DNA from: Scolanthus callimorphus
Taxonomy: Eukaryota > Cnidaria > Anthozoa > Actiniaria > Edwardsiidae
Assembly: GCA_033964015.1 (NCBI GenBank)
Contig: CM066923.1
Location: 7,677,978-7,741,977 of the forward strand
Direction of reading: 5' to 3'
DNA: 64,000 nucleotides
Shown here: positions 13,478 to 50,495 of the stretch, piece by piece
Position numbering within the stretch: position 1 is the first letter of the stretch
Layout: each line of letters starts with the position of its first letter
Translations under genes and position numbers: made by a program
Notes under the pieces: model-generated
What the model was told of the DNA's origin: nothing
Seen by the model: only the letters and a program-made list of their open reading frames with translations
The model's database searches: none

Positions 13478-14010
13478 CTCTACCATATGCCAGTTGTGTT
13501 GACTGCACTTCACTGTCCGCACATTAGGCAGGTGCTCATCAGATAGTAGCTCCCTGCACTCATATCCCTACATCACCTCCCTGCCCGATGTACATAGGGA
13601 TAATGATTCTGTCTCGATGAACCAACGGCTGTTCATCGTCGAACGCTTCATAATTATTGCTCCATCATTTGATGCCAATTGTGTTGACTGCAACTCACTG
13701 TACGTATTAGACAGGTGTTCACATAGTAACTCCCTCCACTCTTTCTCCCTACATCACCTCCCTGCCCGATGTATATAGGGTTAATGATTCAGTCTCCGAC
13801 AAACTAACGGCTGTTCATCGAAAGCTTCATGATATGTATTGCTCCACCATTTGATATCGATTGTGTTGACGTGTCCCACTGTCCGCATTAGGCAGGTGCT
13901 CACGCCCTCCACTCTTTCTCCCTACATCACCTCCCTACCCGATGTATATAGGGATAATGATTCTGTCTCCTATAAACGAACGGCTGTTCGTCGAAAGCTT
14001 CATAATTATT
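13478..14010. repeat. About 184-bp tandem repeat copying the 3' end of GT31 gene A
   Basis: Units begin near 13499, 13684 and 13866 (period 182-185 bp). Each contains the phrase CCCGATGTA(C/T)ATAGGG followed by ATGATTC(T/A)GTCTC and GCTTCAT. In the third unit this sequence is the minus-strand coding sequence for the last about 25 residues of gene A. The first two units are therefore duplicated 3' coding ends lying downstream of the stop codon. Confidence 0.75.
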
Positions 14011-15515
14011 TGGTAGAAAAGCCACGGTTACGTAAACCAGAATCATTGATAAGGATATTAATATTCCATAGACAGCAGACAGGATATTATCATTTCTAGG
14101 TATGTTCCTTCTATGACAAGCCTGCCAGTCCTTAGAGGACAACCTTGAGGGGTCAATCATAGGTAATTTGCTATGGACATATTCTATTGTAGAACCTTCT
14201 AGCCTATGACCTATAGCAACAGCAGTTGCCCATTCACAGGGCTTGAAGTTCCGAATCAAACCTGGCATCCAATTATTAATATAAAACCCGGGTATAAAGA
14301 CCGGTCGCATGCCCATATATCTTAGCAATACACCCATGTAAACATCCTCTATGTGGAACGGTCGAATGTGGCTCGTTAGGCGAATAAAATCCGGTAATAA
14401 ATTCTTCGTGAAGACATAAAATGCCCCCTCGCAGTATGGCGGATAGACATTTTCATTGAAAAACAATTTGCTAATGCCATGCTTGTTATTCACATCACGG
14501 AATACCTGTGCGTTGACGATAGGGTAACCTCCGAAGAAGCGATCTGGGGCGGACTCTAGTAAAGTAGTTAACCTTGGAATGTAAACATATGTATCATCAT
14601 CGGCTTTGAGAATAAATTTACTTTTCACATTGTCTTGTGCCCATTTGAATCCCATATATACCTTGATGATCAAATTTACGTAATTATCAGGGAACTCCCC
14701 AATCACGAGATCGTTATGCTCTTTCGCTTCGTTTTCGATTTCCGTATCAATCGTTTCATTGTAGCTCTTCCCAAGCAAGAAGACCAGCCTAAAGGCCTTA
14801 CAAGCGGGGTTTTAAACGGAAAACCGTGTTTAACTCCCGCGCCGAAATTTTCGAGCTGTATTTTTTTATGAGCCCACGTCCTACGGATTGCATGACGGCG
14901 CTCTGTGTGCGATTTCGATTGCACACCCGAGTTGATCATCACCAGGAGATATAAATTGTCTTCTATTTTCGGCGCAATATGCGGAGTCACTAGACTAAAA
15001 TTCACAGGTGGCCAGTATTCGTGTAAAATTCTATAATCTAGCGTTGGCCGCTCAGTGACATTTGCATTTCTACTGATATTTCCACCTATATTTTTCACGC
15101 TATCTACGACGCTAGGAAGTATCGTGCTCGTAGATCGAGTGACACTTTCTATTTTACGAGTAGTCGCGATGACCTTTTTAGAACGAAGTCGCATAAATCT
15201 TTTGCGAAATTTCCAAGATCCGTGTTTCCTTGAACTTGGAGAGTTATCTACTCCGGTAATGTCTTGATTTTTCTGTATATTCCCGGACCATTCTGAGGCA
15301 GGTGGCGTACCGTTCAAAGCTACTGTAGATTCGACACTCCGCAAGCGACTTCCAGTTCGCACGAATAATACTCTAGAAACGATCACGACTTGGAAGAATA
15401 TCACAATCGTTAGGAAAACCAATAAAGCGAATTTTCGTCTGTGAAGCCCATTAAATAAAGCCATTTGGGTTATCCTGTGGAACAGACGCGTGAACGCTCC
15501 TCTTCCTCGTAACAT
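13927..15515 (-). pseudogene. GT31 gene A: beta-1,3-galactosyltransferase-like, one frameshift
   Basis: A predicted type II Golgi glycosyltransferase of CAZy family GT31. The first frame (15515 to about 14790) gives a short cytosolic tail, a membrane anchor at residues about 29-52, a Ser/Thr-rich stem, the cluster motif YWPPVNF and the donor-binding ERRHAIRRTW motif. The second frame (about 14790 to 13927) gives LVFLLGKSYNET, the metal-binding KADDDTYVYIPRL, YPPYCEGAFYVF and EDVYMGVLLRYM. A single missing base near 14788 switches the frame; everything else is intact, so the loss may be recent, polymorphic or an assembly error. After the catalytic region is a second hydrophobic segment (SAVYGILISLSMILVYVTVAFL) and a short basic/aromatic tail, as in gene B. 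The start is ATG at 15513-15515; an internal Met 18 codons in is an alternative. No introns are seen. Confidence 0.8.
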
Positions 15516-20952: not shown

Positions 20953-22518
20953 CTATCTATTATACCTACCCCTGTGTAAATATGGGTAATAATTCCTTCG
21001 GTTTTGCAGAAATCCATAGTCCTCCTCATCAAATTGACTAGGCAGAAAGGCAACTATTATGTACACAAATATTAAGGTTATCGAAATAAAGATACCCATT
21101 ATTGCAGCCACAATATTTTCATTCTTTTCAACAGGCTTTCGTCTTCGACAAACCATCCAATCGGAATGCGATAACTTTTCTGGGTCAATACTAGTCAGTT
21201 TATTGTGCACTTTGTGAATGTGTGAACCATTTAAGCTGTGTCCTACACAAATGGCTATCGCCCACTCGCAAGCGGGAACGTTGTGTATGTTCGAGGGCAT
21301 CCATCCATTGAGAATTATACCAAACATCAGCGAAGGTCTAACTTTCATATGACGCAGTAATATCCCCAAATACGCATCCTCCACGTGGAAAGGGCGAAAT
21401 TTTGAGGTCAGGTCTATGAAGTCAGGAAGCAGGTTCTTTGTGAAGGCATAAAAGCCCCCACCGCAGTATGGGGGATAGCGATCTTCACTGAAGTATAACT
21501 TGCTGATCGCGTGTTTGCTCATGATGTCGCGAGAAACTGGTGCGTCCCTCCATACCAAACCGCCAAAAAACCGCGACGGCGCCGTCTCAAGGTGTTTGGT
21601 CAACCGCGGCAGATAAACGTATAAATCGTCATCTCCCTTTAGAACATACTTGCATTTGATATTTTCCGCAACCCATTTGAACCCCATGTAGACCTTTATA
21701 ACCAGATTAGTGTAGTTATCAAAAAAATCCCCAACAACTAAATCATTGTGTACTGCTGCCTCCCGCGCTATATTTTGGTTTATCGTCTCGTTATCGCTTC
21801 TCCCCAATAAGAAAACTACTTTGAACGAATGTCCACCGGGATTCCGTGAGGAAAAACGAGTCGAGTTCACCGCACTGGAGCTTACATTTCTCACATTAAC
21901 GGAGTCCGTTGCCCACGTTTTTCTGATAGCGTTTCGCCTTAATAAATGCACGTCTGAGTGAACACCCGAATGTATCATGACTAAAAGAAATAACTCTCTG
22001 TCGTCAATCCGCGGTGCTATCACTGGTGTCTCGATTCTAAAATTCACTGGAGGCCACAACTCATGTAAGATTCTGTAATCTAGAGTTGGCCGTGCACTTG
22101 TTGTCCTAACTGTTTGATTTTTTACTTCACTTCTGTTCCATGTGCTTAGAAAAGTACTAACAGTAGTAGTTTTAAGTACAGGTTTCGTCCTTTTTTTCCT
22201 CATTTTCCGTAGTTTTATCGATTTTAAAGACACTCCTGTAATGTCATTATCAAGATGTTTCCCTGCTAGCAGAGGTCGTTGACTTGATGTATCATTTAGA
22301 GCCTCAGAAACCGACGAAGAGCTTGAGTTAGTTATCGTATCGCGTGATCGTAAGCGACTTGCCGGATCAACCATTAAAACGTGTTTGTTGATGATCACAA
22401 CTTGGCAGAAGATGACTATGGATAGAATCAACAGAATGGCGAACTGCTTTTTCTTGAATCCTCGTAAGGACGTAAATATGCTGATTTTCCGAAGAAGTCG
22501 CTTAATAACAGCCGCCAT
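20953..22518 (-). CDS. GT31 gene B: beta-1,3-galactosyltransferase-like with two membrane segments
   Basis: An intact 521-residue intronless ORF, predicted to transfer a sugar from a UDP donor in beta-1,3 linkage in the Golgi lumen. I chose the ATG at 22516-22518 (AACATGGCGG context); in-frame sequence further upstream has no ATG. N-terminal anchor at residues about 25-44, then a stem of about 120 residues rich in Ser/Thr and basic residues. The catalytic domain shows LWPPVNF, LLRRNAIRKTWA (about 194), VVFLLGRSDNET, KGDDDLYVYLPRL (DDD about 296-298), YPPYCGGGFYAF and EDAYLGILLRHM (about 380). A second strongly hydrophobic segment lies at about 468-492, followed by an about 29-residue tail. 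Most animal GT31 enzymes end without a C-terminal helix, so the fold would put the tail back in the cytosol or hold the enzyme by two anchors. Closest relative in the window is gene A. Acceptor unknown. Confidence 0.85.
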   Translation of the reverse strand: MAAVIKRLLRKISIFTSLRGFKKKQFAILLILSIVIFCQVVIINKHVLMVDPASRLRSRDTITNSSSSSVSEALNDTSSQRPLLAGKHLDNDITGVSLKSIKLRKMRKKRTKPVLKTTTVSTFLSTWNRSEVKNQTVRTTSARPTLDYRILHELWPPVNFRIETPVIAPRIDDRELFLLVMIHSGVHSDVHLLRRNAIRKTWATDSVNVRNVSSSAVNSTRFSSRNPGGHSFKVVFLLGRSDNETINQNIAREAAVHNDLVVGDFFDNYTNLVIKVYMGFKWVAENIKCKYVLKGDDDLYVYLPRLTKHLETAPSRFFGGLVWRDAPVSRDIMSKHAISKLYFSEDRYPPYCGGGFYAFTKNLLPDFIDLTSKFRPFHVEDAYLGILLRHMKVRPSLMFGIILNGWMPSNIHNVPACEWAIAICVGHSLNGSHIHKVHNKLTSIDPEKLSHSDWMVCRRRKPVEKNENIVAAIMGIFISITLIFVYIIVAFLPSQFDEEDYGFLQNRRNYYPYLHRGRYNR

Positions 22519-23640
22519 GTTTTGGTAAAAATCATATTGCGAGTTGTGCGTAATCAAGTACAGCTTTTGAATAATTCATTCTTTGCGGTGAAAAATGCAA
22601 ATGAAAGAGTAATGATCTAAATTTATGTATTAAGTGGTTAATTCTTTACCGAAGAAAAGCTCCCAAGCGATAGTCTGTGACAGAATAATCACAAACAGAC
22701 TTCGCAGTTTGTTGTCCCAGAAATAATTGTCATCAGATAAACCTGTTTCCTTGTGATGATAAAAAAAAAAAATTAAAACCTTAAAAAAATTTCTAATTAT
22801 GAAAAAAGTATTTCTTTTTGCCGTAGTTCGGTAGTCCATTCTATAAGCTTTCCAACGATATATAGGTTGATATGTTTGGTTAAACTAAGGACGTGTATCA
22901 TTTTTTTTTTCGAACACGTGCGCGAAGGTTCTCAGTAACCTTAAAGAAGGATTTCGGCAAAATCCATGTGCAATATACACCTATTACAGAAAAGGTTGCA
23001 CCGTCACAACTGTCAGTTTGTAGCCCACCAAAAACAAATCATGGACACAGTTTTTTTTAGGATACATAGCCCGATACTTATTACCCTGCTTATAATATAC
23101 AGGGCAAAATTACTCGATGCTGATTGGCTAAGAGCGAGGGCATTTTTTCTTTATTGAGGGCAAAACTACTTTGCACACGTCTGAATACGTACACGTACAG
23201 TCAACTCGCGCGCTGAAGTTTGCCCTTTTATATCATAAACATGTAATCACATGGGTTCCTCGTAAAATTAGGGATTTCACTTGTGTTTTCAGTTTTTTCA
23301 AATTTTGGAAAAAAATTGAAAACACTCGTGAAATTAATCCCTAATTTTACTCGGCCCCATGCGATTACCTATACTATACTTTTTAGCCTAAAAGCATCAG
23401 TATAGCGTATTAGTATTTATAATAATTGTTTTTGTTTTCATATGTATATACACCTGATGAGATTACCGTGGGTAAATAAAGTTTATTAGTTTACAGTTGA
23501 CGCGGTTTCCATTGTTATTCGTAGGGAATTAACTCGGATAATGAATCTCAACAAACTAAAAGTCGGGGAGGGATTTGAATTCTCCAGGGAAAGGTTGGGG
23601 TTGATCAATAGAATTGAATTGAATTTCTAGGTAAATATAT
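22519..23640. other. Upstream of gene B; dispersed repeat, no gene
   Basis: 22835-22945 (CTAAGGACGTGTATCATTTT) occurs in inverted orientation at 26695-26810. 23270-23350 is an inverted repeat around TTTTTCAAATTTTGGAAAAA. No coding sequence supported. Confidence 0.45.
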
Positions 23641-29166: not shown

Positions 29167-30687
29167 CTACGTCGGATAACTGAAGGAGGAGCCATAGAGG
29201 ATTTTCTCTACTTCTCTAAAAACTTTCACTGAATATCTTCTGCGACACTTTCTCCAATTCACTCTCTTAGGGATAACCCTCAGTATTCTTCTGTGCACCT
29301 GATAGATTTGCGTACCATTTAGCTTGTGCCCAATACAAAGGGCGGTCGCCAACTCACAGGGGAAGATATGATTGATTGCTTTCGGCATGCGGTCGTGTAT
29401 AATCGTTACATACATGTATGTAGGTTTAACTTTCATGTGTCGTAATAAGATTCCCAGGTACGCATCTTCGACGTGAAATGGTGTGTATGTGTTAGTCAAA
29501 TTTATCAATTCTGGAGTTAAATTATTAGAAAATGCGTAATACCCGGCACAGTAAGGAGGATAAAACTTCTCCTTAAAGTACTTCTTACTGATTGCGTGCT
29601 TGTGTTTCAAATCACGTACAACAGGAGCTCCCTTCCAAACCAATCCGCCATAGAAGCGTGGTGGGGCTTTGTCTAAATGTTTTATCATCCGTGGTAAATG
29701 TAAATACATATCGTCATCCGCCTTGAGGACAAATTCACAGTTTATATTCTCTTGAATCCACTTGAGTCCCATGTAGACTTTGATAATTATGTTGATATAT
29801 GTGTCGCGGAAGTTTCCAATAACTATGTCGTTAAATATTTCAGCTTCTCTAGCGTTTCCTTGGTTTACAGTTTCGTTTAAACTTTTCCCAAGCAAAAACA
29901 CTACTTTGTAAGGTCGATGAGCTAGCATTTTCGCTGTAGTATTATTCCTTTGAGAGAAAGTATTGAGCATCAATTCCTTCGCCCCCCATGTTTCTCTGAT
30001 CGCATTTCTTCTCCCGACATGCGGTTCTAAGTTGGCACCAGAGTGTATCATCACGAGCAAAAACAATTCTGTCTTCTCCATCTTAGGTGCGATAATCGGT
30101 GTCTCGAATCTAAAATTCACAGGTGGCCAATACTCGTGTAACATTTTATCGCGTGTTGTTGGAAGAGGTTCTTGAGTTCTAGTATTTTTCCATCCAGTTT
30201 TCATTTTCAACTCCATCCTCTTTTCATTTTTGCTCGCCCTTGTCGTAGATGGAGTAGCCCTTCCAATTTTCTCGTCATACTGTACTTGTTCCAAGATCTC
30301 TTGTCTTGCCTTTTTAAACGTTTGTTTTTTTAACATTTTATCACATGTTGTTGGAAGTGGTTCTTGAGTATTTTTCCATCCAGTTTCCATTTTCAACTCC
30401 ATCCTCTTTTCATTTTTACTCCCCTTTGTCTTAGATGGAGTAGCCGTTATATTTTTCTCGTCATACTGCGTGGTCTTTTCTTCCATGGTCTTTTGTGTTG
30501 CCTTTTCAAGCGTTTGTTTTTGGATGTTTTCGACCGTTTTCGTTTTGGTTTGCCCTCGTGCGGGTCTTGCAGAGCCCATAAGCAAATCCATGCTGACATA
30601 ACAGACAAGATAAATACAAACAAGGCATAAGAAGTACAGCTGCTTTCTGCAACCACGTACAGTAACTTTGCCAATCCGCGGCATCAT
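29167..30687 (-). CDS. GT31 gene C: beta-1,3-galactosyltransferase-like, repeat-containing stem
   Basis: Intact 506-residue intronless ORF with adjacent ATGs at 30687 and 30684. Short cytosolic tail, anchor at about 16-36, then a highly charged lysine-rich stem to about 185 containing two direct repeats of about 70 residues (landmarks SKNEKRMELKM, GWKNT and EPLPTT). The catalytic domain follows the cluster motif YWPPVNFRFETPIIAPK: GRRNAIRETW (about 226-234), VVFLLGKSLNET, KADDDMYLHLPRM (about 322-334), YPPYCAGYYAFS and EDAYLGILLRHM (about 407-418). Unlike A and B it ends without a C-terminal helix. Predicted Golgi lumenal UDP-sugar:beta-1,3-transferase; donor and acceptor are not deducible. 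Genes C, C' and D share upstream DNA as well as coding sequence, so they arose by segmental duplication and probably share regulation. Confidence 0.85.
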   Translation of the reverse strand: MMPRIGKVTVRGCRKQLYFLCLVCIYLVCYVSMDLLMGSARPARGQTKTKTVENIQKQTLEKATQKTMEEKTTQYDEKNITATPSKTKGSKNEKRMELKMETGWKNTQEPLPTTCDKMLKKQTFKKARQEILEQVQYDEKIGRATPSTTRASKNEKRMELKMKTGWKNTRTQEPLPTTRDKMLHEYWPPVNFRFETPIIAPKMEKTELFLLVMIHSGANLEPHVGRRNAIRETWGAKELMLNTFSQRNNTTAKMLAHRPYKVVFLLGKSLNETVNQGNAREAEIFNDIVIGNFRDTYINIIIKVYMGLKWIQENINCEFVLKADDDMYLHLPRMIKHLDKAPPRFYGGLVWKGAPVVRDLKHKHAISKKYFKEKFYPPYCAGYYAFSNNLTPELINLTNTYTPFHVEDAYLGILLRHMKVKPTYMYVTIIHDRMPKAINHIFPCELATALCIGHKLNGTQIYQVHRRILRVIPKRVNWRKCRRRYSVKVFREVEKILYGSSFSYPT

Positions 30688-35169: not shown

Positions 35170-36630
35170 TCAACCAAGAAGGGCACGAGTCTGTATTTCT
35201 TTAAAAACGTCCCCTGAGTATCTACTGCGACACACATTCCAGCTCGACGTATCCAGCGTTTTAGGATAAACACTCAGCATTCTTCTATGCACCTGATGAA
35301 TGTGTGTGCCATTTAGCTTGTGCCCAATACAAAGGGCGGTTGCTAATTCGCAGGGGAAAATTTCCTTTATTTCTTTTGGCATGGACTGGTCAAGAAAAAT
35401 CAAATGCATGTACGTAGGTACAATTTTCATGTGCCGCAGTAATATACCAAAGTACGCATCCTCGATGTGAAATGGTGTGTATGTGTTTGTCAAGTTAATG
35501 AGCTCGCGGATTATGTTTGCAGAAAAGGCGTAATACCCGCCACAGTAAGGTGGATAAACCTTCTCGTCAAAGTACTTTCTACTAATTCCGTGCTTGTGTT
35601 TAAAATCACGTTCCACAAAACCGTCTCTCCAAACCAATCCGCCATAGAAGCGTGGTGGGGCTTTGTCTAGAGATTTCATCAATCGTGGTAAATGTAAATA
35701 CATATCGTCATCCGCCTTGAGTACAAATTCACAGTTTTTATTCTCTTGAATCCACTTGAGTCCCATGTAGACTTTGATAATTATGTTTATGTAAGTGTCG
35801 CTGAAGTTTCCAATAACTATGTCGTTGAACACTTCAGCTTCTCTTGCGTTTGCTCGATTCACCGTTTCGTTTTCATTTTTCCCAAGCAGAAACACTACTA
35901 TGTAAGGTCGACGATGAGCTTGTAGCGATGTAGTATTATTATTGAGCAGTGAGTCCTTCGCCCATGTTTCTCTGATCGCATTTCTTCTCCCGACATGCGG
36001 TTCTAAGTTGGCACCAGAGTGAATCATCACGAGCAAAAACAATTCTGTCTTCTCCATCTTAGGTGCGATAATCGGTGTCTCGAATCTAAAATTCACAGGC
36101 GGCCAAAACTCATGTACCATTTTATCGCGTTTTGTTGGAAGAGGTTCTTGAGTTCTAGTATTTTTCCATTCAGTTTTCATTTCTATCTTCTTTACATTTT
36201 TGCTCGGCCTTGTCGTAGCTGGCGTAGCCCTTCCAATTTTCTCATCATACTGTTCTTGTTCCAAGATCTCTTGTCTTGCCATTTTAAGCGTTTGTTTTGC
36301 TAACATTTTATCACTTGTTGTTGGAAGTGGTTCTTGACTACTATTTTTCCATCCAGTTTTTATTTTCAACTCCATCTTTTCATTTTTGCTCACCTTTGTC
36401 GTAGATGGCGTAGCCCTTCCAGTTTTCTTGACCTCTTGTGTTGCCATTTGAAACGTTTGTCTTTGGATGTTTTCTACTTTTTTGGTTTCGGTTTGCACTT
36501 GTGCGGGTCTTGCAGAGCCCACTTGCAAATCCATGCTGACATAGCACAATATTAAAATGCAAACAAGGCTTAAAAAGAACAGTTGCTTTCTGCAACCATG
36601 TACAGTGACTTTGCCGATCCGTGGCAGCAT
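35170..36630 (-). CDS. GT31 gene D: beta-1,3-galactosyltransferase-like, paralog of gene C
   Basis: Intact 486-residue intronless ORF from ATG at 36628-36630; the frame is open 25 codons further up, but alignment with gene C (MMPRIGKVTV versus MLPRIGKVTV) sets this start. Layout as in C: cytosolic tail, anchor at about 17-37, charged stem with two copies of the GWKN...EPLPTT repeat, then FWPPVNFRFETPIIAPK. Catalytic motifs GRRNAIRETWA, VVFLLGKNENET, KADDDMYLHLPRL, YPPYCGGYYAFS and EDAYFGILLRHM are all intact. No C-terminal helix. The stem repeats are present in both C and D, so the internal duplication predates the gene duplication. Predicted Golgi UDP-sugar:beta-1,3-glycosyltransferase of unknown acceptor. 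Confidence 0.85.
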   Translation of the reverse strand: MLPRIGKVTVHGCRKQLFFLSLVCILILCYVSMDLQVGSARPAQVQTETKKVENIQRQTFQMATQEVKKTGRATPSTTKVSKNEKMELKIKTGWKNSSQEPLPTTSDKMLAKQTLKMARQEILEQEQYDEKIGRATPATTRPSKNVKKIEMKTEWKNTRTQEPLPTKRDKMVHEFWPPVNFRFETPIIAPKMEKTELFLLVMIHSGANLEPHVGRRNAIRETWAKDSLLNNNTTSLQAHRRPYIVVFLLGKNENETVNRANAREAEVFNDIVIGNFSDTYINIIIKVYMGLKWIQENKNCEFVLKADDDMYLHLPRLMKSLDKAPPRFYGGLVWRDGFVERDFKHKHGISRKYFDEKVYPPYCGGYYAFSANIIRELINLTNTYTPFHIEDAYFGILLRHMKIVPTYMHLIFLDQSMPKEIKEIFPCELATALCIGHKLNGTHIHQVHRRMLSVYPKTLDTSSWNVCRSRYSGDVFKEIQTRALLG

Positions 36631-36704
36631 GTTGAAATTATAGCGATTTCCAGCAAGCTTAAATCTTGAAGGAAAAAAACCGTGTTTGTTTGTGCAGTTA
36701 GTCA

Positions 36705-37580
36705 TATTTACTCACCTCGAGATATTTACTCAACTCAAGATCTTGTGCGGAGTGGTAATGACTTGAGGGATGATGCTTGACCGCTATTTTCATGACCTGA
36801 TGCATTGTTTTTTTTTATTCGATGTGATACTCTCAAATATTCACCGGTACATAGCTAGCGGTCCTCTTCTACACCCCCTGTAGTTTTTTGCTGACGAAGA
36901 ATCGAGAAGTTATCTTTATTGTTTTTATGCCTTAGCTTATCAGTCAAAATATTTCATGTAGTTCCTTTGTCAATTTTTAAGGCACGCCCTCTCTCTTTCA
37001 GACTTGAACAGCCACAGAGAGCTCTCTCTCTCTCTCTCAGACTTGTACCTGTCCTCAGACTGCGGTCGTATAACTGAGTTGTTTAGACTATCACAAACAG
37101 TGATACCATTGAGGAGAATAAGATGAATGTACCGCTTTGGCAAATTTGAGGCTAACTGTTCATCATTTGAAAACGCTGTTGAGGAGCCTCTCGGCGTCTC
37201 CTCATTCTTGAGGTTGGCGGTCGTACAACTGAGTTGTTAGACTAACAACAATGATACTATTGAGGACAATGAGACTGAGCGAAAACGTGATTGAAAATGT
37301 CACCTAGTAGCTGAAAATCGGCTTGAAGAATCTCAAGTTTTTAATCTCGATTGCTCAAGGATAACAGGATAAACAGGATAAGCGCTATATGTGTCCTTTT
37401 CAAAGTTCAGATCAATGAAACAATGTTTATGTCAATCGGAAACAGCACCCTCCTATTTTGTTACTACAGTAACATTGAATACAACATTAAAATATGAATG
37501 ATTTACTCGAAATGTTATTATTTCTTCCAAAGTGATACAAATTTCAAATTAATGAAAATTTTATGGCGCTGTTACAGCCG
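36705..37580 (-). repeat. Upstream region of gene D, shared with C and C'
   Basis: Contains GGTAATGACTTGAGGGAT (36754-36771) and the GTTGTTTAGACTATCACAAA block twice (about 37065-37125, and a second version at about 37210-37275), plus GTTACTACAGTAACATTGAA (about 37460). A CT microsatellite lies at 37023-37040. Candidate promoter sequence, but the conservation may only reflect duplication. Confidence 0.55.
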
Positions 37581-39000: not shown

Positions 39001-39042
39001 CCTCGGCTTTGCATGAGTGTAGGTTTTACAAGCGATTGATTA

Positions 39043-39310
39043 CTGTGCGACTACGTCAACCGGGCCATCCCGTAAAAAGTTTGTCATTTAGAGATTCAAA
39101 CCATTCTAAGCAAATTTGATACCTGCAATACATCTGACGATGAGTAATTAAGTGTTTTTAAGTTATTTCTGCTCATAATTTCCACAATTTTTACGAGAAA
39201 AGCGATATTTCGGTGTCTCAGATCTCAAGAAAGTCGAGATCCTTTGTTCTGTACTCGCTTTCTGATTGGCTAACTTCTTACAAAATGGCCCGGTTGACGT
39301 AGCCGCACAG
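39043..39310. mobile_element. MITE family R5, copy 2, opposite orientation
   Basis: Ends CTGTGCGACTACGTCAACCG and the complement of GGTTGACGTAGCCGCACAG. TA at 39041-39042 and 39311-39312. Internal sequence is the reverse complement of copy 1 (CTCATCGTCAGATGTATTGC versus GCAATACATCTGACGATGAG). Confidence 0.85.
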
Positions 39311-39772
39311 TAAAATGTAATTGTATTTTCATCAACGCGTATATATGGCTGCCGTTTTGCAGAGCGCCGACTGGGGCATGTTTTTGCGATCGTTGCGATA
39401 ACATCGTAAAAGCGCCCGAGAAGAATGCCCCAGACTCCCCACGGAGAACGCCCGCTGGTGTCATCAAAATGCTAACTTCTAAACTAAAGCCTCTACGGAG
39501 ATGCACTTTAAATGTTGATTTTAACTCCGCAGAGGGAGTCTGCACACAAAATTTTATCACTTTCTGACAAATGGTTCCGGAAAGATAGGTGAGAGCATTT
39601 TCGTACCTAGAGCTTCCCGGCACGTCTGCTCGCAGGGGAGCCAAACCAGTCAAGTACGTCAACGATCCTGTGTGACATTTGTGTGCAGAGGCTGGCCTCA
39701 GTCAGCAGGGAAAGAACCCGATTGAATGGATTTCAACAATAATGATACTATGCGTAAAACGTTTGTCTTTTA

Positions 39773-39902
39773 CTACGGAAATCACTAAACTGTTGCCACC
39801 CGGGGTACAAACGATCGCCTCGCAGTTGTGAAAGCGATCGACCGCTTTTTGATTTCGGTTAACTCACGTGACCATTTCGATTGATCGAAATTGTCACGTG
39901 AT
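39773..39902 (+). promoter_or_regulatory. Left terminal inverted repeat with two CACGTG boxes
   Basis: Carries CACGTG at 39865-39870 and 39895-39900 and several CGATCG-type words. It ends 68 bp upstream of the ATG of the 525-codon ORF, so it may serve both as transposase binding site and as promoter (E-box, bHLH-type). Confidence 0.5.
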
Positions 39903-39969
39903 ATTGCACGCTGTGTGTGGCGCGGCGCCGACTGTTGTTGCGAAGAGTGCGAATGGTGAATAACTTGAA

Positions 39970-41547
39970 ATGGCAGCTTTCCAAGTAAAAGTATTTTACG
40001 GAGAAGATTTTAAGAGATGTGGAACATTTTTTATTAATTTTACCGAATATGTTGACTTTTCTATGGATAAATTTCTAATGAGAGTGAAGGATGTGACCAA
40101 AGTATTTGAGACAGTGGCGCCCAGTCAAATCAGGCTCCGCTACTTGGATGATGAAAGCTGCTTTGTCAACCTCGAAGAACAACTGATGGAGGAATTGTTT
40201 CGATGCGCCAGAAATGTTAACGGTGTGGATTGGAAGCGAATAACTGTACAAGCTGAGGTATGGAATTCTCCAGCTCCAAAACCGTCGAAAAGGCAGAAGC
40301 AAGAATTGCACGATACTGATAGTGATAGCTGCGAAGCAACAAGCGACAACAGTCGGAATGAAAGCCAAACACGAGAACTACTTGGAGATCGCTATTTCAC
40401 ACCAGTTGAAAGGCTCATCAGATCAAAGGAAAGTGAACTCAAGAAACAGGAACAATTAGTATCAGGCAAAAAGAGGTCACTGATTTCTCTCGAAGAGCTA
40501 TTTTCTACAAAGCCTTTCCATGCGACACGGCCAGCCTGCAGCAAGTGTCACTTGCGCTCAGGTCATATTAGAACAAACTGCACGAATGAACAATGCACTT
40601 CAGCTCGATTCTGTGGGGATCTCAAAAGACACCCTGAAGACAAGAAAGAAATTAGAGAGTTGAAATCGGATCTGAGTCATCACAATACACAACTACGCAG
40701 AATGAAAGACGAATTACACAGTTTAAAAGAGAGTGTGCAGTCTTCGAAAAGATCATTTTCACAACAAATACATTCAAACTTAGTCAACAGCAACAAAGCT
40801 AAATACATGTCTCCAGATGGAATTATTGATTGGATGACGTTAAATACCGATTCTAAAAAAGTCGAGAAATTTTTTCATGGAAAAATTCCTGGGCAAAACG
40901 AAGATTTGCAAGCGGCAATTGAAAAACATGACTTACAAGAGCAGGCTTGTATTCCAGTGTGTAGAAGTGCGACGAGCTCTGCAGTGAAGGGGTTGTGGGC
41001 GAAGAAAGGACTGAAATTTCCAGGTAGCGGCCCAATTTATTCATCGACCTCGGAAAAATATTCACATATACCAGCGCCTAGTAATCCTGCAGAGGAAATG
41101 TATCAAATAGAACTAGCTATTCGGGAAAGCGAGAGAGTGGATAACACTCAAACTCTAACAGATCATTGTAGCGATGGCGCCCTGAAAACTACAACTCCAC
41201 AGGATCGTTCGCAGACTATGGCTACGAATGTTTTGAGAAATGAGTGCTCATATCCATCATTGCCCCGTCCTTATGACTATCCGTACTTCGCTGGTGCAGG
41301 GCCTACGGCGCCGATAGTTTATAATTTTCCCACTGGCAATCCTTTTGTTTACAATCGCTACGGGGAGTATTCCCACACTGCTACAACGCAAGTTTTTCCT
41401 CCTCATAATAACCTTGGAAATGGCTCAGAATATACGCAAAGCGAAATGACTCCAGTGCCAAATGAAGTCGAAGTAGCAGAAGAAAAATCAGAAGAAAATT
41501 CTCTCAATGTTCTGGCGAGCGCGGCAAATTTCTTATCAAGAGAGTGA
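39970..41547 (+). CDS. Transposon-encoded PB1-like / zinc-knuckle-like accessory protein
   Basis: 525 codons, uninterrupted, start ATG at 39970 shortly inside the left inverted repeat. Residues about 5-96 resemble a PB1 domain: a strand with a conserved-type Lys (VKVFYGEDFKRC) and an acidic OPCA-like stretch (RLRYLDDESCFVNLEEQLME). Residues 101-165 are polar with a basic patch (KPSKRQK) that could be a nuclear localisation signal. Residues 190-221 hold a Cys/His cluster, CX2CX5HX4C followed by CX5C and HPE, close to a retroviral-type CCHC knuckle. Residues about 222-262 are predicted coiled coil. The C-terminal half is low-complexity with Tyr/Pro-rich and acidic segments. PB1 domains mediate oligomerisation and CCHC knuckles bind nucleic acid, so a transposition partner or assembly factor is a reasonable inference, not shown. 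It is not a transposase: no DDE motif. Confidence 0.7.
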   Translation: MAAFQVKVFYGEDFKRCGTFFINFTEYVDFSMDKFLMRVKDVTKVFETVAPSQIRLRYLDDESCFVNLEEQLMEELFRCARNVNGVDWKRITVQAEVWNSPAPKPSKRQKQELHDTDSDSCEATSDNSRNESQTRELLGDRYFTPVERLIRSKESELKKQEQLVSGKKRSLISLEELFSTKPFHATRPACSKCHLRSGHIRTNCTNEQCTSARFCGDLKRHPEDKKEIRELKSDLSHHNTQLRRMKDELHSLKESVQSSKRSFSQQIHSNLVNSNKAKYMSPDGIIDWMTLNTDSKKVEKFFHGKIPGQNEDLQAAIEKHDLQEQACIPVCRSATSSAVKGLWAKKGLKFPGSGPIYSSTSEKYSHIPAPSNPAEEMYQIELAIRESERVDNTQTLTDHCSDGALKTTTPQDRSQTMATNVLRNECSYPSLPRPYDYPYFAGAGPTAPIVYNFPTGNPFVYNRYGEYSHTATTQVFPPHNNLGNGSEYTQSEMTPVPNEVEVAEEKSEENSLNVLASAANFLSRE

Positions 41548-41572
41548 ACGCGCGAAATTTTGCCTCTCGCCC

Positions 41573-41940
41573 TCGGATGAGTATTCAACACAGCAGTCCA
41601 GAAAATATAAACGATATTCCATTGCATTTCTAGCTTGTGAACATTGTGCGGTACGCTTATTTTACTAGAAACTGATATTACGTGTAAAACTGTTATTGTT
41701 TGGGTAGCTTGTGTTGGATTTGACAGAAACATTTTGCGTCTCGGATGAGTGTTCAACAATCGAGAAAATGGTTGTGCTTTGTCTTTGTGTTTGCTTTTAC
41801 TAGACTTATAAAACGTATAAGACTTATAAATATTTCATTGCGATTTCTAGCTTGTGAACATTTGTGTGGCAGTCTAATTTTAGAACTCTTTTTGTTTGGG
41901 TAGCTTGTGTTGGATTTGACATAAACACTGAGAAATGTAA
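41573..41940 (+). repeat. Tandem duplication downstream of the accessory ORF
   Basis: Two imperfect copies of about 175 bp, both with TTTCTAGCTTGTGAACAT and TTTGGGTAGCTTGTGTTGGA. Possibly the 3' untranslated region duplicated. Confidence 0.65.
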
Positions 41941-42126
41941 AAAAAAAAACACTTAAACAGATATAAAGTTGAGTTCTGTATCATAGCATTTACTGTGGAC
42001 TTCTATCTAGCATTTAAAGTTTTCAGTGGCAGATGTTTATCTTTTTATGCATTGTAGCTCAACTCCTGGCTTTAAACCAAAATAGACACCAGCAAATCAA
42101 TGCGTCTTCTCTGAGAAAAGCTGATC

Positions 42127-43984
42127 TTAAAGCCTTCCAAAGTATTCAACATGGTTATAAAAACCACGTAAATCGCTAGGAGAAACCTCCCGTAGCGCGC
42201 GATAAATACCAACGTCAAGGTTGTACCTTAGAAGGTATCGATACTCGTACCTATGTAGCACGGTTTTAAGTTTATTGAAAACAAGTTCCACTGGGTTGAG
42301 CTCCGGTGAGTACACCGGTAGGTACAACAGAGTGACGCCAAATGTGTCAAACCATTAGGCCAATATCTGTCCTCCCTCGAAACGATGGAACGCAACATTG
42401 TCATGGGCTGACCGCCTGGTTGCGTGTGTTGGCTGGCTTCGTGAAAGAAATTCAAAAATTCAAGTGTGTTGCTTGCTCCACCGATAGTGTTCGCATACAT
42501 TACTCCGCTAAGTCCACACAGTAAATTTAATGTGACGTTTGGAGTTTGTGTATTTCTCATTATCTCCACACAAGGTGTTCCTTTCACCGAATGTCCGTAC
42601 TTGGGGTTCGCACAGTCAGGGAGTTTGAATCCAGCTTCGTCGAAAAACTTGACGCGATACGGGTCAAGTGTGCTCATAAAATCAATAAAGCTTTGACAGT
42701 AAGCGATATTTTCAGGCGTAAACTTCTCAGCTGCTGGCCTAATCATTTTTTTCCAAGTCATTTGTCCATCGGGTAAACGATCTCTAACGGCCCTTCCGAT
42801 AGCAGAAATAGACGGCTGTGCATTGGAGTTAGCCTGCGCGCATCCGGTACACACGAGCTTAACCTTTAGGGTTAGTACCGTCTGCGAATTAACGGTCAAT
42901 CGCTTGTGTTAGACCCCCTGCATGCTAGTGGGAATATCTATAACACGCTGTCATTGGCTCTCGTTCTATCGGAGTCACTGATTGGTGAAACACACTCGGG
43001 CCAGTATTTTCCGGTGCTCGCTAGGTGCAATGTTTTGATTGCGTTACCTGAGTTTTGACGGCGGGACGAACGACTTCTAATTTCTTTCAACTATAGGCTA
43101 TTCAAAAGCAATTGTTTCACGCAAAACGAACGGTACCTGTCGACGCAAAACTAAAAATTTGGTTTTGATATTCCTTCGGAGTTGCGAACTTTATCCTTCG
43201 TTAATTCCACGTACCCTTCGAAGTACCCTTCGAAGTTGATTTCAGCATCGCGGCAAGCACTGATAAATCAGCGATTTACTGTATCCTGTCAGTCCTGTTG
43301 GCAAGTTTACAAGTATAAAGAAGGCTTTTATTCTCTCCTATTGTTCTGGAAAGAGATTCTCGATTTAGAATTGGGTTCGTACCGACTCAAAGGCCCAGAT
43401 CGAGAAGCTCACTGTATTTTACTTAGGGCCATTCCATTTTTTATCCGCACCCCCCCCTACGGAAGAGGTTTTCCTCCAAGAGTCATGTTGTTTATGATCC
43501 CAGGCCAAGTTTAACCGGAAGTTTGTTAATCTCCTACGCCGCAGGGGATGTAACACAAGCGGCCGACCGTTAATGCGCAGACGGTACTAACCCTAAAGGT
43601 TAAGCTCGCGTGTACCGGATGTTCGCAGGCTACATTGGAGTGTGCGTCGACATTCTCTTTTATCTCTTTATATGTAATGGAGGGTCTTTGCTTTACCAGG
43701 AGCTGCACCAAATCCAATTCTGGTTCCTCTAGTTTTTTCGGTTGACCTCTAGCTGTGTGGCTAGGGAGATACGTTCCGGTTTGACACAAAGTCTGCCAAC
43801 TTTTGGAAATTGTAGGTCGACTCACTTTGTATTTCGCGCTCAGAGCTCGAATACTGCCGGGAAAATATCCGATTGCCGCATCTCCACCACTGCTTAACAT
43901 GTCATCTAAAATTAGCGATCTCAAGTCTTTTCCTATTGATTTTCCTTGGTTATACGTTCTTCCGTGTATATTTGTTTTCGACAT
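42127..43984 (-). pseudogene. Tc1/mariner-superfamily DD37E transposase, triply disrupted
   Basis: The N-terminal part (43984-43642; ATG at MSKTNIHG) has a paired-type helix-turn-helix, IRALSAKYKVSRPTIS, followed by a second basic HTH region. After a foreign insert (42830-43632) the frame continues exactly, VDAHSN to AQPSIS, with the catalytic domain: first Asp in VKFFDEAGFKLPD, second Asp in DNVAFHRFEGG, Glu in YSPELNPVELVF, with 37 residues between the last two. Damage: (1) the 803-bp insert, (2) a one-base frameshift at about 42400 just before the second Asp, (3) a stop codon in place of a sense codon at about 42358. The restored length would be about 345 residues, normal for the superfamily. 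Would have bound the terminal repeats and cut and pasted the element into TA sites. Confidence 0.85.
42830..43632. mobile_element. 803-bp Mutator-like non-autonomous element in the transposase gene
   Basis: Inverted ends of about 80 bp start TAGCCTGCG and continue with ATCCGGTACAC and CTTAACCTTTAGGGTTAGTA. A perfect 9-bp direct repeat CATTGGAGT borders it (42821-42829 and 43633-43641). Removing it with one repeat copy restores the transposase frame. Nine-base duplications with long inverted repeats are typical of Mutator-like elements. No ORF inside. Confidence 0.8.
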
Positions 43985-44036
43985 TTTGAAGAACAAAACT
44001 ACCGCGCCGTTTTTTTGCAAACGATGCTTTGAGCGA

Positions 44037-44166
44037 TGTCACGTGACAATTTCGATCAACCAAAACGGTCACGTGAGTTAACCGAAATCAAAAAGCGGTC
44101 GATCGCTTTCACAACTGCGATCGATCGTTTGTACCCCGGGTGGCAACAGTTTAGTGATTTCCGTAG
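44037..44166 (-). promoter_or_regulatory. Right terminal inverted repeat with two CACGTG boxes
   Basis: CACGTG at 44040-44045 and 44070-44075, mirror images of the left repeat. It lies 53 bp upstream of the transposase ATG (43984), so both genes of the element would use the same promoter sequence. Confidence 0.5.
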
Positions 44167-44299
44167 TAAATTGGTTATAAGCACTAGAGTGATATTACGC
44201 GCCCTCGGGATTTTGTCAACTAGTGTTTATTAGAGATAATAACGAAATTCTTCTCTTGCGTATGGGCTGTCTAGCGATCCACCTCTTGCGCATTATATT

Positions 44300-47220: not shown

Positions 47221-48432
47221 CTAGCGATGCTCATAGCCGTAAAGGGTTTCCTCTACTTCTTTAAAAACTGCCGTAGAAAATCGTTTGCGACACACGTTCC
47301 AGCTGGATCGATCTATCGTTTTATGGTTGACGCTTAACATTTTACGGTGAACCTCACGAATGTGTGAGGCATTCAGCTTGTGCCCAATGCAAAGGGTGGT
47401 CGCCCATTCACACTGGGGAATGCGATTAATTCCGCGTGGTAGTAGCCAGTCGTCCAGTATTATCACATGCATACTCTTAGGTTTAACCCTCATGTACCGT
47501 AATAAAATACCAAAGTAAGCATCCTCGATGTGAAATGGTTTGTATCTGTAAGTCAAATCAATGAGCTGGGCGATCAGTTTCTTCGAAAAGGCGTAATACC
47601 CGCCACAGAAGGGGGGATAAAACTTCTCGTCAAAGTACTTTCTACTAATTCCGTGCTTATGTTTAACGTCGCGTATTACTTTAGATCCCTTCCAAACCAA
47701 TCCGCCATAAAAGCGTGGTGGTGCTTTGTCTAGATATTTCATTGATCGTGGTAAATGTAAATACATATCGTCATCCGCCTTGATTACAAATTCGCAGTTT
47801 ACATTCTCATGAATCCACTGAAGTCCCATGTAGACTTTGATAATTATGTTGATATACGTGTCTGAAAATTCGCCAACCAATATATCATTGAACTTTTCAG
47901 CTTCCCTAGCGATTTCTTGGTTAAAAGTTACATTGTCACTTCTCCCAGTTAGAAAAATGAGTTTGTAAGGTCGGTTAGGTGTTGTGATATTGAAAGTACT
48001 GTTACCTATCGAGTCTGTTTGGTTGCCAATCTGCACAGAGTCCTTCGCCCATGTTCCCCTTATCGCATTTCTTCTCCCAACATGCGGTTCTAAGTTGGCA
48101 CCAGAGTGCACCATAACAAGCAAAAACAACTTTCTGTTGTCCATCTTGGGAGATATAATGGGTGTCTCGAATCTAAAATTCACCGGCGGCCAGTACTCAT
48201 CTAAAACCCCGTTACGTGTTCGCACGCGATTTTCAGTTCCCGTTTTCCATTCACCTTTTGTACTCGCATTTGACTCCGTTTCCTTTTCATTGATTTGGTC
48301 TGATTTCGCTCTTCTGTACTCTCTTGTTCTTGACAAGATTGTACCCAAGCTGACAATGTATAAGATATATACACAAAGACACAAGATGCAAAGTCTCTCT
48401 GCGCAGCGTCTCACAGTTAACTGCTTAAGCAT
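47221..48432 (-). CDS. GT31 gene E: beta-1,3-galactosyltransferase-like
   Basis: Intact 403-residue intronless ORF. The start is ATG at 48430-48432 (MLKQLTVRRC); the frame is open upstream but without another ATG, and the start aligns with MFKQLTVRRC in gene F. Anchor at about 13-33, short stem of about 45 residues without the C/D repeats, then EYWPPVNFRFETPIISPK. Catalytic motifs: GRRNAIRGTWAKDS (about 120), LIFLTGRSDN, KADDDMYLHLPRS (about 218-230), YPPFCGGYYAFS and EDAYFGILLRYM. The ending is similar to C/D (SSWNVCRKRFS), with no C-terminal helix. Lies head to head with F in an inverted duplication. Predicted Golgi UDP-sugar:beta-1,3-glycosyltransferase. Confidence 0.85.
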   Translation of the reverse strand: MLKQLTVRRCAERLCILCLCVYILYIVSLGTILSRTREYRRAKSDQINEKETESNASTKGEWKTGTENRVRTRNGVLDEYWPPVNFRFETPIISPKMDNRKLFLLVMVHSGANLEPHVGRRNAIRGTWAKDSVQIGNQTDSIGNSTFNITTPNRPYKLIFLTGRSDNVTFNQEIAREAEKFNDILVGEFSDTYINIIIKVYMGLQWIHENVNCEFVIKADDDMYLHLPRSMKYLDKAPPRFYGGLVWKGSKVIRDVKHKHGISRKYFDEKFYPPFCGGYYAFSKKLIAQLIDLTYRYKPFHIEDAYFGILLRYMRVKPKSMHVIILDDWLLPRGINRIPQCEWATTLCIGHKLNASHIREVHRKMLSVNHKTIDRSSWNVCRKRFSTAVFKEVEETLYGYEHR

Positions 48433-49218
48433 GTCGAATGCTAAGGCGCATGAAGAAGGAACGAAACGCTTGGCTATGCTTGGTACCTGTAATGCCGCCA
48501 CAGGGAGGTAGATATCTTTACGTTTTCTATTTTATTACCGCATGTTGCCCGATCATCTCGTAATCCTATTGGTCAATAATATGCCTTGGTAAACAACTGC
48601 TGACATCATTTGAACTTCAACTTTGAACTCGAGCCGGTTTCTCGATTCCCGTATTTAAAAAAATCATTTTTTGTCGGTTTTCATCGGGATCCTCCTCGTG
48701 CAAGAATTAATATAGGAGAATACGAATTTACGTAGACTAGGCGTATATACACGTACTATATACAAATAATAATAACAAGAACAAGATTAATAATGATAAT
48801 GATGATAATATTAATAATGATACTCGTGGATTTTTGGCTCGAAATGCTGCTAAATACATGTATAAATAGTAATAAAATAAATGAAATGGCAAAAAAGAGA
48901 TAAATAGATTAAACAAAGAAATAAAGACAAAAAAATATGAGTTTCGAGCTCGGTTCAAGTTCAAGTTCAAAGTGACGCGAGAGTTGTTGACCAATCGGAT
49001 TGCGAGATACTAAATCGACAGTGCAAATTGCAGTAAAATTCAGAATTAGCTTACTACCTAGCAATATTTCTGCTTGTTGAAGCTTACGCCTGAGGGTAAT
49101 TAAGCTGATATTGACGGATGTTTAAGCAAGCAAAAATTTACTCCACTTTGCTGTGGCGGCCTCACAGTTACTAAGCATAGTTTAAGCGTGTCGTTCTATC
49201 TTCTTGTTTGCATTCAAC
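48433..49218. promoter_or_regulatory. Shared divergent upstream region of GT31 genes E and F
   Basis: 786 bp between two divergent start codons. The outer about 75 bp on each side are inverted copies of one another (GGCGGC...AAGCATAG), showing that the duplication extends past the coding regions. An AAT/ATA microsatellite lies at 48765-48830. No core promoter motif is clear. Confidence 0.5.
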
Positions 49219-50495
49219 ATGTTTAAACAGTTAACTGTGAGACGTTGCGCAGAGAAACTTTGCATCATGTGTCTTTGTACGTACATCTTCTACCTTGTCA
49301 GCTTGAGTACAATCTTGGTTTCAAGAAGCAAAGGAGAGTACAGAAGAGCGAAAGCAGAGCAAACCATGCAAAATAAGACGTCTCGACACGAGAAACACAG
49401 CAACGGTTCATCTATGTCAAAAGTGAGAGAAAATACCACGACCGAACCAGAAACCAGCAAAAAAGGTGAACGGAAAACTACTGGAACTCCAAAACCTTTA
49501 TCAGCGCGTGATCAAATGTTAAATGGGTTTTGGCCGCCGGTGAATTTTAGATTCGAGACACCCATTATATCTCCACTGATGGACAACAGAAAGTTGTTTT
49601 TACTTGTTATGGTTCACTCTGGTACCAACTTAGAACCGCATGTTGGGAGAAGAAATGCGATAAGGGGAACATGGGCGAAGGATTCGGTACACAGTGACAA
49701 AGAAACAGCTTCTATGGGTAATACTTTCAGGAACAAAGCATTTGACCGACCTTTCAAACTAGTGTTTTTAATTGGGAAAAATGACAACGAAGGTGTTAAC
49801 CAAGAAATCGCGAGGGAAGCTGAAAAGTTTAATGATATAATGGTGGGCAACTTTCCAGACACATATATCAACATAATTATCAAAGTCTACATGGGACTCA
49901 AGTGGATTCAAGAGAATATAAACTGTGAATTTGTCCTCAAGGCGGATGACGATATGTATTTACATTTACCACGATTGACAAGATATCTAGACAAAGCCCC
50001 ACCACGCTTTTATGGCGGATTGGTTTGGAAGGGAGCCCCCGTTATACGTGAGTTTAAACACAAGCATGGAATTAGTAGAAAGTACTTTGACGAGAAGTTT
50101 TTTCCGCCTTACTGTGCCGGGTATTACGCCTTTTCTGCGAACTTAATCCCGGAGTTCATTAACTTGACAAACACATACACACCATTTCACATCGAGGATG
50201 CGTACTTTGGCATTTTATTAAGACACATGGAAATTGAACCTACGTACACCCATTTGTCAATTCTTTATGAGTGGATTCCACAAACATTGCATCTCGTTCC
50301 TAACTGTGAATGGGCGACTCTGGTTTGCATTGGGCACAACTGAATGGTGCAAATATTCATCAGGTACACGCTAAAATTATGAGTGTTAACCCTAAAACGC
50401 TAGATCGGTGGAGCTGGAATGTGTGTCACAAGAGATATTCAAAGGAACGTTTTAGAAAAATACAGAAAGATCTTCATGGTTTTGAGATTCGCTAG
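49219..50495 (+). pseudogene. GT31 gene F: beta-1,3-galactosyltransferase-like, frameshift near the C-terminus
   Basis: ATG at 49219. Anchor MFKQLTVRRCAEKL...FYLVSLSTIL, stem of about 75 residues, FWPPVNFRFETPIISPL, GRRNAIRGTWAKDS, LVFLIGKNDNEG, KADDDMYLHLPRL, PPYCAGYYAFS and EDAYFGILLRHM are all in frame. At about 50340 one base is missing (CACAACTGAATGG where paralogs have the IGHKLNG codons), so translation stops at IGHN (50343). The expected last about 50 residues (HQVHAKIMS, WSWNVCHKRYS) lie in the next frame and are otherwise clean to the stop at 50495. The catalytic core is complete, so a truncated product could still be made; a base-call error is possible. Confidence 0.8.

What the first reader, a model, noticed from the sequence alone, without database searches (positions are those of the whole stretch)
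39773..44166. Two-gene Tc1/mariner-type transposon with a PB1/CCHC-like partner protein
Seen: about 130-bp inverted repeats bordered by TA, a minus-strand DDE transposase with 37 residues between the second Asp and the Glu, and a convergent 525-codon ORF with PB1-like, Cys/His-knuckle and coiled-coil regions. Known: classical Tc1/mariner elements carry a single gene and usually short repeats. Inference: the partner is a dedicated component of a two-protein transposition system, or a captured host gene.
Basis: partly seen in the sequence, partly recalled or inferred. Interest (0 to 1): 0.9.

Follow-up and report, generated by a model that had tools for sequence, protein, structure and literature searches.

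The report
Two-gene jumping element with self-assembling partner
This is a Tc1/mariner-type jumping gene that carries, beside its transposase gene, a second gene found with it in all eight long copies detected in this genome and next to many distant transposases there; the second protein is predicted to self-assemble and bind zinc, so it likely helps the element jump.

Summary
The element is real: 39773-44166, ~135-bp terminal inverted repeats (95%), TA on both sides. The minus-strand gene is a Tc1/mariner-type (DD37E) transposase, in this copy broken by a nested 803-bp element, a 28-bp deletion and a stop. The plus-strand 525-codon gene is intact.

In the window's own genome, 8 of 8 long copies found (99.8-99.9% identical, TA-flanked, different sites) carry both genes; two have both open. 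Beyond this family, 57 of 74 partner-like loci have a transposase within 5 kb (about 0.2% each by even scatter): 45 convergent, 12 tandem, none divergent. Partner and transposase distances co-vary over eight lineages (r 0.92). 47 of 104 transposase loci had no partner found.

The partner has a predicted PB1 fold, a zinc-knuckle module (eight Cys/His in 12 of 12 representatives) and coiled coils. In two tandem lineages the N-terminus looks SAM-like instead. I infer a self-assembling, nucleic-acid-binding co-factor of the transposase; its function is untested. Multi-gene Tc1/mariner elements are known in ciliates; ten open-access literature searches showed me no such partner.

The parts
39771..39772 (.). 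left TA target-site dinucleotide
   Evidence: sequence; 8 of 8 long copies TA-flanked
39773..39907 (+). left terminal inverted repeat, ~135 bp
39864..39901 (.). 38-bp imperfect palindrome TCACGTGA...TCACGTGA inside the left repeat; possible protein-binding site (inferred); its counterpart in the right repeat is 44039-44076
39970..41547 (+). partner gene, 525 codons, intact
39970..40263 (+). predicted PB1 domain, residues 1-98
   Evidence: AlphaFold2 + Foldseek/VIA; Pfam PB1 the only hit for this piece but under cut-off
40402..40506 (+). first long helix / coiled coil, residues 145-179
40537..40632 (+). zinc-knuckle module C-x2-C-H-x4-H-x4-C-x4-C-x5-C-x5-H, residues 190-221
   Evidence: 9 of 9 proteins checked; eight ligand positions in 12 of 12 representatives
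40633..40743 (+). second coiled coil, residues 222-258
41500..41541 (+). conserved C-terminal helix, residues 511-524
42127..43984 (-). transposase gene, broken; stop at 42127-42129, start at 43984; open as 357 codons in three sister copies (L032, L035, L036)
43633..43984 (-). transposase N-terminal piece with paired-like DNA-binding domain
   Evidence: 66% identical to P0011; profile of relatives matches Pax/PRD
42402..42827 (-). transposase middle piece with the first catalytic Asp
   Evidence: 82% identical to P0011
42355..42357 (-). in-frame stop codon inside the catalytic domain
42830..43632 (.). nested non-autonomous element, 803 bp, 92-bp inverted repeats
   Evidence: empty site in five of five sister copies checked
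42821..42829 (.). 9-bp target duplication of the nested element, left copy (right copy 43633-43641)
44033..44166 (-). right terminal inverted repeat
44167..44168 (.). right TA target-site dinucleotide

Best explanation
This is a two-gene Tc1/mariner-type (DD37E) DNA transposon whose second gene sits beside the transposase in all eight long copies found in the genome and likely encodes a dedicated, self-assembling, nucleic-acid-binding helper of transposition. Shown: both genes read inward from just inside matching ~135-bp repeats; the copies are nearly identical, TA-flanked and at different sites; many distant relatives keep the same pairing, and the two genes co-diverge. Predicted: a PB1 domain in the partner (SAM-like in two other lineages), coiled coils and a zinc-knuckle module. 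Inferred: the two genes are expressed together from the repeats; the partner polymerises through PB1, binds DNA or RNA through the knuckles, possibly at the palindromes of the long repeats, and holds the two ends and the transposase in one complex; the transposase cuts and pastes at TA.
Confidence: 0.65

Rival explanations
1. The partner does not act in the DNA-cutting complex but shields the element from the host: it counters silencing or regulates the element's own transcription, binding the element's DNA or RNA.
For: Knuckle and coiled-coil modules fit RNA or DNA binding; both genes start about 50-60 bp inside the repeats, where regulation would act. The partner diverges faster than the transposase, as expected of a protein that faces the host.
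Against: Pairing with one transposase family and co-divergence fit a physical partner at least as well. No chromatin- or methylation-related family was among the Pfam hits.
Confidence: 0.18
2. The partner carries the transposase into the nucleus or stabilises it, as the Myb-like protein of Harbinger3_DR does.
For: Precedent of a second transposon protein needed for nuclear import (PMC3158080, passage read; the original paper was not read).
Against: Tc1-like transposases are reported to have their own nuclear signal (same passage). A polymerising domain and a two-zinc module are more than a carrier needs.
Confidence: 0.12
3. Captured host gene or passenger with no role in transposition.
For: PB1 and SAM are common host domains; the PB1 fold matches are host proteins such as p62, NBR1 and Par6. 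17 of 74 partner-like loci have no transposase found near them.
Against: A profile search of about 5.8 billion proteins returned only ten proteins, all of this family (only candidates sharing words and of similar length are seen). 8 of 8 long copies found keep it; pairing is shared by lineages with up to 79% partner divergence.
Confidence: 0.04
4. Chance neighbourhood or open-frame artefact.
For: None beyond the usual need to check.
Against: Homologous proteins with conserved start and motifs; pairing far above even scatter and never divergent.
Confidence: 0.01

Closest known systems
IS630-Tc1-mariner transposons of animals (Tc1, mariner, DD37E groups TRT, L18, Mosquito, L31)
   Same: TA target site, paired-like DNA-binding domain, DDE_3 catalytic domain, DD37E spacing.
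   Different: These carry as a rule a single transposase ORF (PMC10379824, passages read); here a second, larger gene is in every long copy found. Which DD37E group it belongs to could not be tested, since no reference sequences could be fetched.
Ciliate Tc1/mariner elements: TBE, Tec and the Paramecium ITm elements
   Same: More than one ORF; repeats of ~80 bp (TBE) to ~700 bp (Tec) (PMC7325037, passages). [quoted passage not shown] All 13 Paramecium elements carry an ORF2 of unknown function (PMC5405496, passages).
   Different: Three ORFs in TBE and Tec, up to four in Paramecium, some with a tyrosine recombinase; no PB1 or SAM in the passages read. Homology of their extra ORFs with this partner was not testable.
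Kolobok with KolX and other accessory proteins
   Same: Animal DDE transposon with a second gene; KolX shares the P2X7 fold with two zinc ions and seven conserved Cys (PMC9587614, passages).
   Different: Other transposase superfamily; other partner fold and domain order.
Harbinger transposase plus Myb-like protein
   Same: Two proteins, the second needed for nuclear import (passage of PMC3158080).
   Different: Unrelated transposase and partner (recalled).

Membership tests
IS630-Tc1-mariner superfamily | TA target duplication | tested here: met
   8 of 8 long copies found, different flanks
IS630-Tc1-mariner superfamily | DDE/D catalytic domain of the DDE_3 type | tested here: met
   DDE_3 above cut-off in 6 of 6 relatives scanned; D-D-E with 37 in 29 of 30
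IS630-Tc1-mariner superfamily | paired-like N-terminal DNA-binding domain | tested here: met
   profile of 30 transposases matches Pax5 E 2.8e-7 and PRD 1.1e-6; Sleeping Beauty 0.0023
IS630-Tc1-mariner superfamily | single ORF (usual, not defining) | tested here: not met
   two genes in 8 of 8 long copies found
DD37E groups L18, L31, TRT, Mosquito | position in the transposase tree | not testable with these tools
   no reference sequences available; text descriptions only
PB1 domain | PB1 (beta-grasp) fold | tested here: met
   two predictions from one eleven-row alignment, top ten VIA rows PB1 both times; predicted, not solved
PB1 domain | Pfam PF00564 gathering score | tested here: not met
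   window piece 12.9 bits, relatives up to 22.2, cut-off 23.6; still the best hit in 5 of the 7 N-terminal pieces scanned
PB1 domain | basic Lys in strand 1 and acidic loop (recalled as the two interaction faces) | tested here: met
   Lys7 and Asp60 in 11 of 11; the acidic loop is shorter in 6 of 11
CCHC zinc knuckle | C-x2-C-x4-H-x4-C (recalled) | tested here: inconclusive
   window has x5 instead of x4; L066, L086, L089, L091 have the exact spacing; no zf-CCHC among Pfam hits
SAM domain (two tandem lineages) | Pfam SAM_1/SAM_2 | tested here: inconclusive
Kolobok | TTAA target site (recalled) and Kolobok transposase | tested here: not met
   TA target and DDE_3 transposase

The most novel reading that the evidence does not exclude
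A deep branch of Tc1/mariner-type transposons is obligately bipartite: its transposase works only with a Gag- or ORF1p-like protein that polymerises head to tail, through PB1 in most lineages and through SAM in others, and coats the element's ends or transcript by zinc knuckles. Evolution swapped the polymer-forming domain while keeping the nucleic-acid core, so polymerisation itself is the needed property.
Probability: 0.35. Interest if true: 0.9.

Novelty: new variant of a known kind. Interest (0 to 1): 0.76.

Why it matters
Tc1/mariner is the textbook one-protein cut-and-paste system. A diverse branch that travels with a second gene, one built from polymer-forming and zinc-knuckle parts, would mean that assembly of the transposition complex can depend on an element-encoded scaffold, and it gives a clean test: does the transposase need the partner? 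The recent, near-identical copies make that test practical.

Tried and rejected
Led nowhere: partner in phage records, no match; partner, transposase and end-repeat scans of viral contigs, no relatives; bacterial and archaeal contigs gave 22 loci with distant IS630-type transposases at 23-47% and partner matches no better than E 0.01; solved structures by sequence gave only one coiled-coil match at E 1.2 for the partner; viral fold library, no match with E<=0.001.

Considered and dropped: an intron instead of an insertion in the transposase (the 803-bp stretch has inverted repeats, a 9-bp duplication and an empty site in sister copies); a ubiquitin-interacting motif near residues 371-390 (by eye only, no Pfam hit); a single-gene sister lineage at L087/L088 (a knuckle ORF is there).

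Literature: ten searches of open-access PubMed Central only; no paper was read whole. None of the listings or passages that I saw showed a PB1 or SAM partner in a DNA transposon. Work on the DD37E groups L18 and L31 by Puzakov and Puzakova is mostly in journals not held; I recall vaguely, unverified, that L31 elements may have been noted to carry a second ORF, so part of this could be in print.

Counts: for the contig-length coincidence 71 of 72 transposase lengths were used (P0081 left out by oversight; its length matches none). Genome searches score only the best candidates: 40 of 128, 82 of 152, 114 of 295, so totals are lower bounds. The transposase list rests on one query, P0030.
Full report
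What is there. The finding's coordinates are exact. The element runs from 39773 to 44166 with TA on each side; its ends are inverted repeats of about 135 bp, 94.9% identical, the outer part perfect. The 20-nt end motif occurs nowhere else in the window. Both genes begin 50-60 bp inside the repeats and read towards each other: the 525-codon partner at 39970-41547 (+) and a transposase from 43984 down to a stop at 42127-42129 (-).

State of this copy. The partner is intact. The transposase is not: an 803-bp element with 92-bp inverted repeats sits at 42830-43632 between two copies of CATTGGAGT, and five of five sister copies checked (of seven) show the same place with a single CATTGGAGT. A 28-bp deletion and a stop codon in the catalytic domain follow.

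The transposase. A search with the natural ORF 42231-42899 (residues 24-178) found 72 proteins. An alignment of 30 of them has D-D-E with 37 residues in 29; DDE_3 is above cut-off in 6 of 6 scanned; the N-terminus is paired-like by profile (Pax5, E 2.8e-7). The window's intact middle piece falls with P0011 and P0012 in a supported group of seven rows. This is a Tc1/mariner-type transposase. Which named DD37E group it belongs to could not be tested.

Other copies. After many unanswered attempts the window's own genome (596.8 Mb, 302 contigs) could be searched. The end repeat gave 58 matches (40 of 128 candidates scored), of which 16 are the ends of eight long copies of 3.6-4.4 kb. All eight carry both genes. 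All are TA-flanked, at different sites, and 99.83-99.94% identical pairwise; partner and transposase are both open in two (L032, L036). So the family appears to have multiplied very recently. The other 42 matches are 18 short head-to-head pairs and 6 single ends, counted by eye; of 12 fetched, both ends were found in 8, and 6 of those have TA on both sides.

Beyond the family. The partner protein has 83 matches in this genome, 74 loci after merging. The 15 best divergent loci, fetched with flanks, all have a transposase relative downstream on the opposite strand: 12 within 1.5 kb, the other three 1.8-2.5 kb away. A genome-wide list of transposases (115 matches, 104 loci) was set against the partner list: 57 of 74 partner loci have one within 5 kb where about 0.2% would by even scatter; 45 are convergent, 12 tandem with the transposase first, none divergent. 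At partner E below 1e-20, 26 of 27 are paired, and the 27th has a transposase fragment (66.7% over 45 residues) in the convergent position. Against this, 17 of 74 partner-like loci had no transposase by that list (16 not opened; many are weak matches that may be coiled coil only), and 47 of 104 transposase loci had no partner found. The one such lineage opened, L087 and L088 (99.9% identical), has a diverged knuckle ORF convergent with it, seen only in L087 and cut at its N-terminus, so the misses are at least in part a limit of the search.

Co-evolution. Trees of partner and transposase from 14 linked pairs give the same family groups. For eight representatives the distance matrices correlate with r 0.92; 17 of 40320 permutations do as well. 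Long branches in both trees make the deepest joins unsure. In six between-lineage pairs the partner's synonymous sites are saturated while dN is 0.35-0.46; within families dN/dS is 0.5-1.1 where defined, on few differences.

A changed N-terminus. In the two tandem lineages opened (L089/L090 and L091/L092; four of the 12 tandem loci) the partner keeps the knuckle and coil core but its N-terminus, scanned for L089 and L091, matches SAM_1/SAM_2 rather than PB1, under the cut-off; the transposases there read DD38E. PB1 and SAM are unrelated domains that both are known to form head-to-tail polymers (recalled). I read this as a hint that polymerisation is what the partner must do.

How it most likely works. 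Shown: two genes, matching repeats, TA insertion, near-identical copies, both genes in every long copy found, pairing and co-divergence in a wide set. Inferred: the repeats drive both genes; the partner polymerises, binds nucleic acid by its zinc module, perhaps at the 38-bp palindrome in each repeat, and brings ends and transposase together; the transposase does the chemistry. Rivals are an anti-silencing or regulatory role and a carrier role. A captured passenger is unlikely.

What is known. Multi-gene Tc1/mariner elements exist in ciliates: TBE with three ORFs, one of them zinc-finger (PMC4724952, passages), and all 13 Paramecium elements (PMC5405496, passages). Other animal superfamilies have second proteins, such as KolX in Kolobok (PMC9587614, passages). 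Tc1/mariner elements are described as single-ORF as a rule (PMC10379824, passages). In ten open-access searches I saw no PB1 or SAM partner. This is a new variant of a known kind, and a striking one.

Noticed in passing
window 42830-43632: 803-bp nested non-autonomous element with 92-bp inverted repeats and a 9-bp target duplication (Mutator-like by size, recalled); no second copy in the window.
   Followed up: partly
L089 3172-4149, L091 1818-2948: Partner of tandem lineages has a SAM-like instead of a PB1-like N-terminus, with DD38E transposases.
   Followed up: partly
L087 41-1219 and 2207-3247: A still more distant two-gene pair (knuckle ORF, split by a stop, convergent with a DD38E transposase), in two copies 99.9% identical, missed by the genome-wide partner search.
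   Followed up: partly
L039-L050: Short elements with the same end repeats (240-293 bp in the eight with both ends found): non-autonomous relatives, possibly moved by this transposase.
   Followed up: partly
window 39040-39313: A 274-bp stretch with 53-nt inverted repeats (83%) and TA-like ends, probably another non-autonomous element, just left of the transposon.
   Followed up: no
window 13930-50340: Six Galactosyl_T ORFs (13930-14778, 20956-22557, 29170-30687, 35173-36705, 47224-48501, 49204-50340), an array of galactosyltransferase-like genes.
   Followed up: no
window 2943-4225: Two pieces of a GDA1_CD39 nucleoside phosphatase gene.
   Followed up: no
window 41500-41541: Conserved C-terminal helix of the partner ((N/S)-x-L-D-x-L-A-x-A type), seen by eye in 7 of 9 proteins; role unknown, a possible docking peptide.
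   Followed up: no
P0071: Transposase relative labelled Candidatus Thiodiazotropha taylori on a 2,073-base contig: probably host DNA in a symbiont assembly.
   Followed up: no
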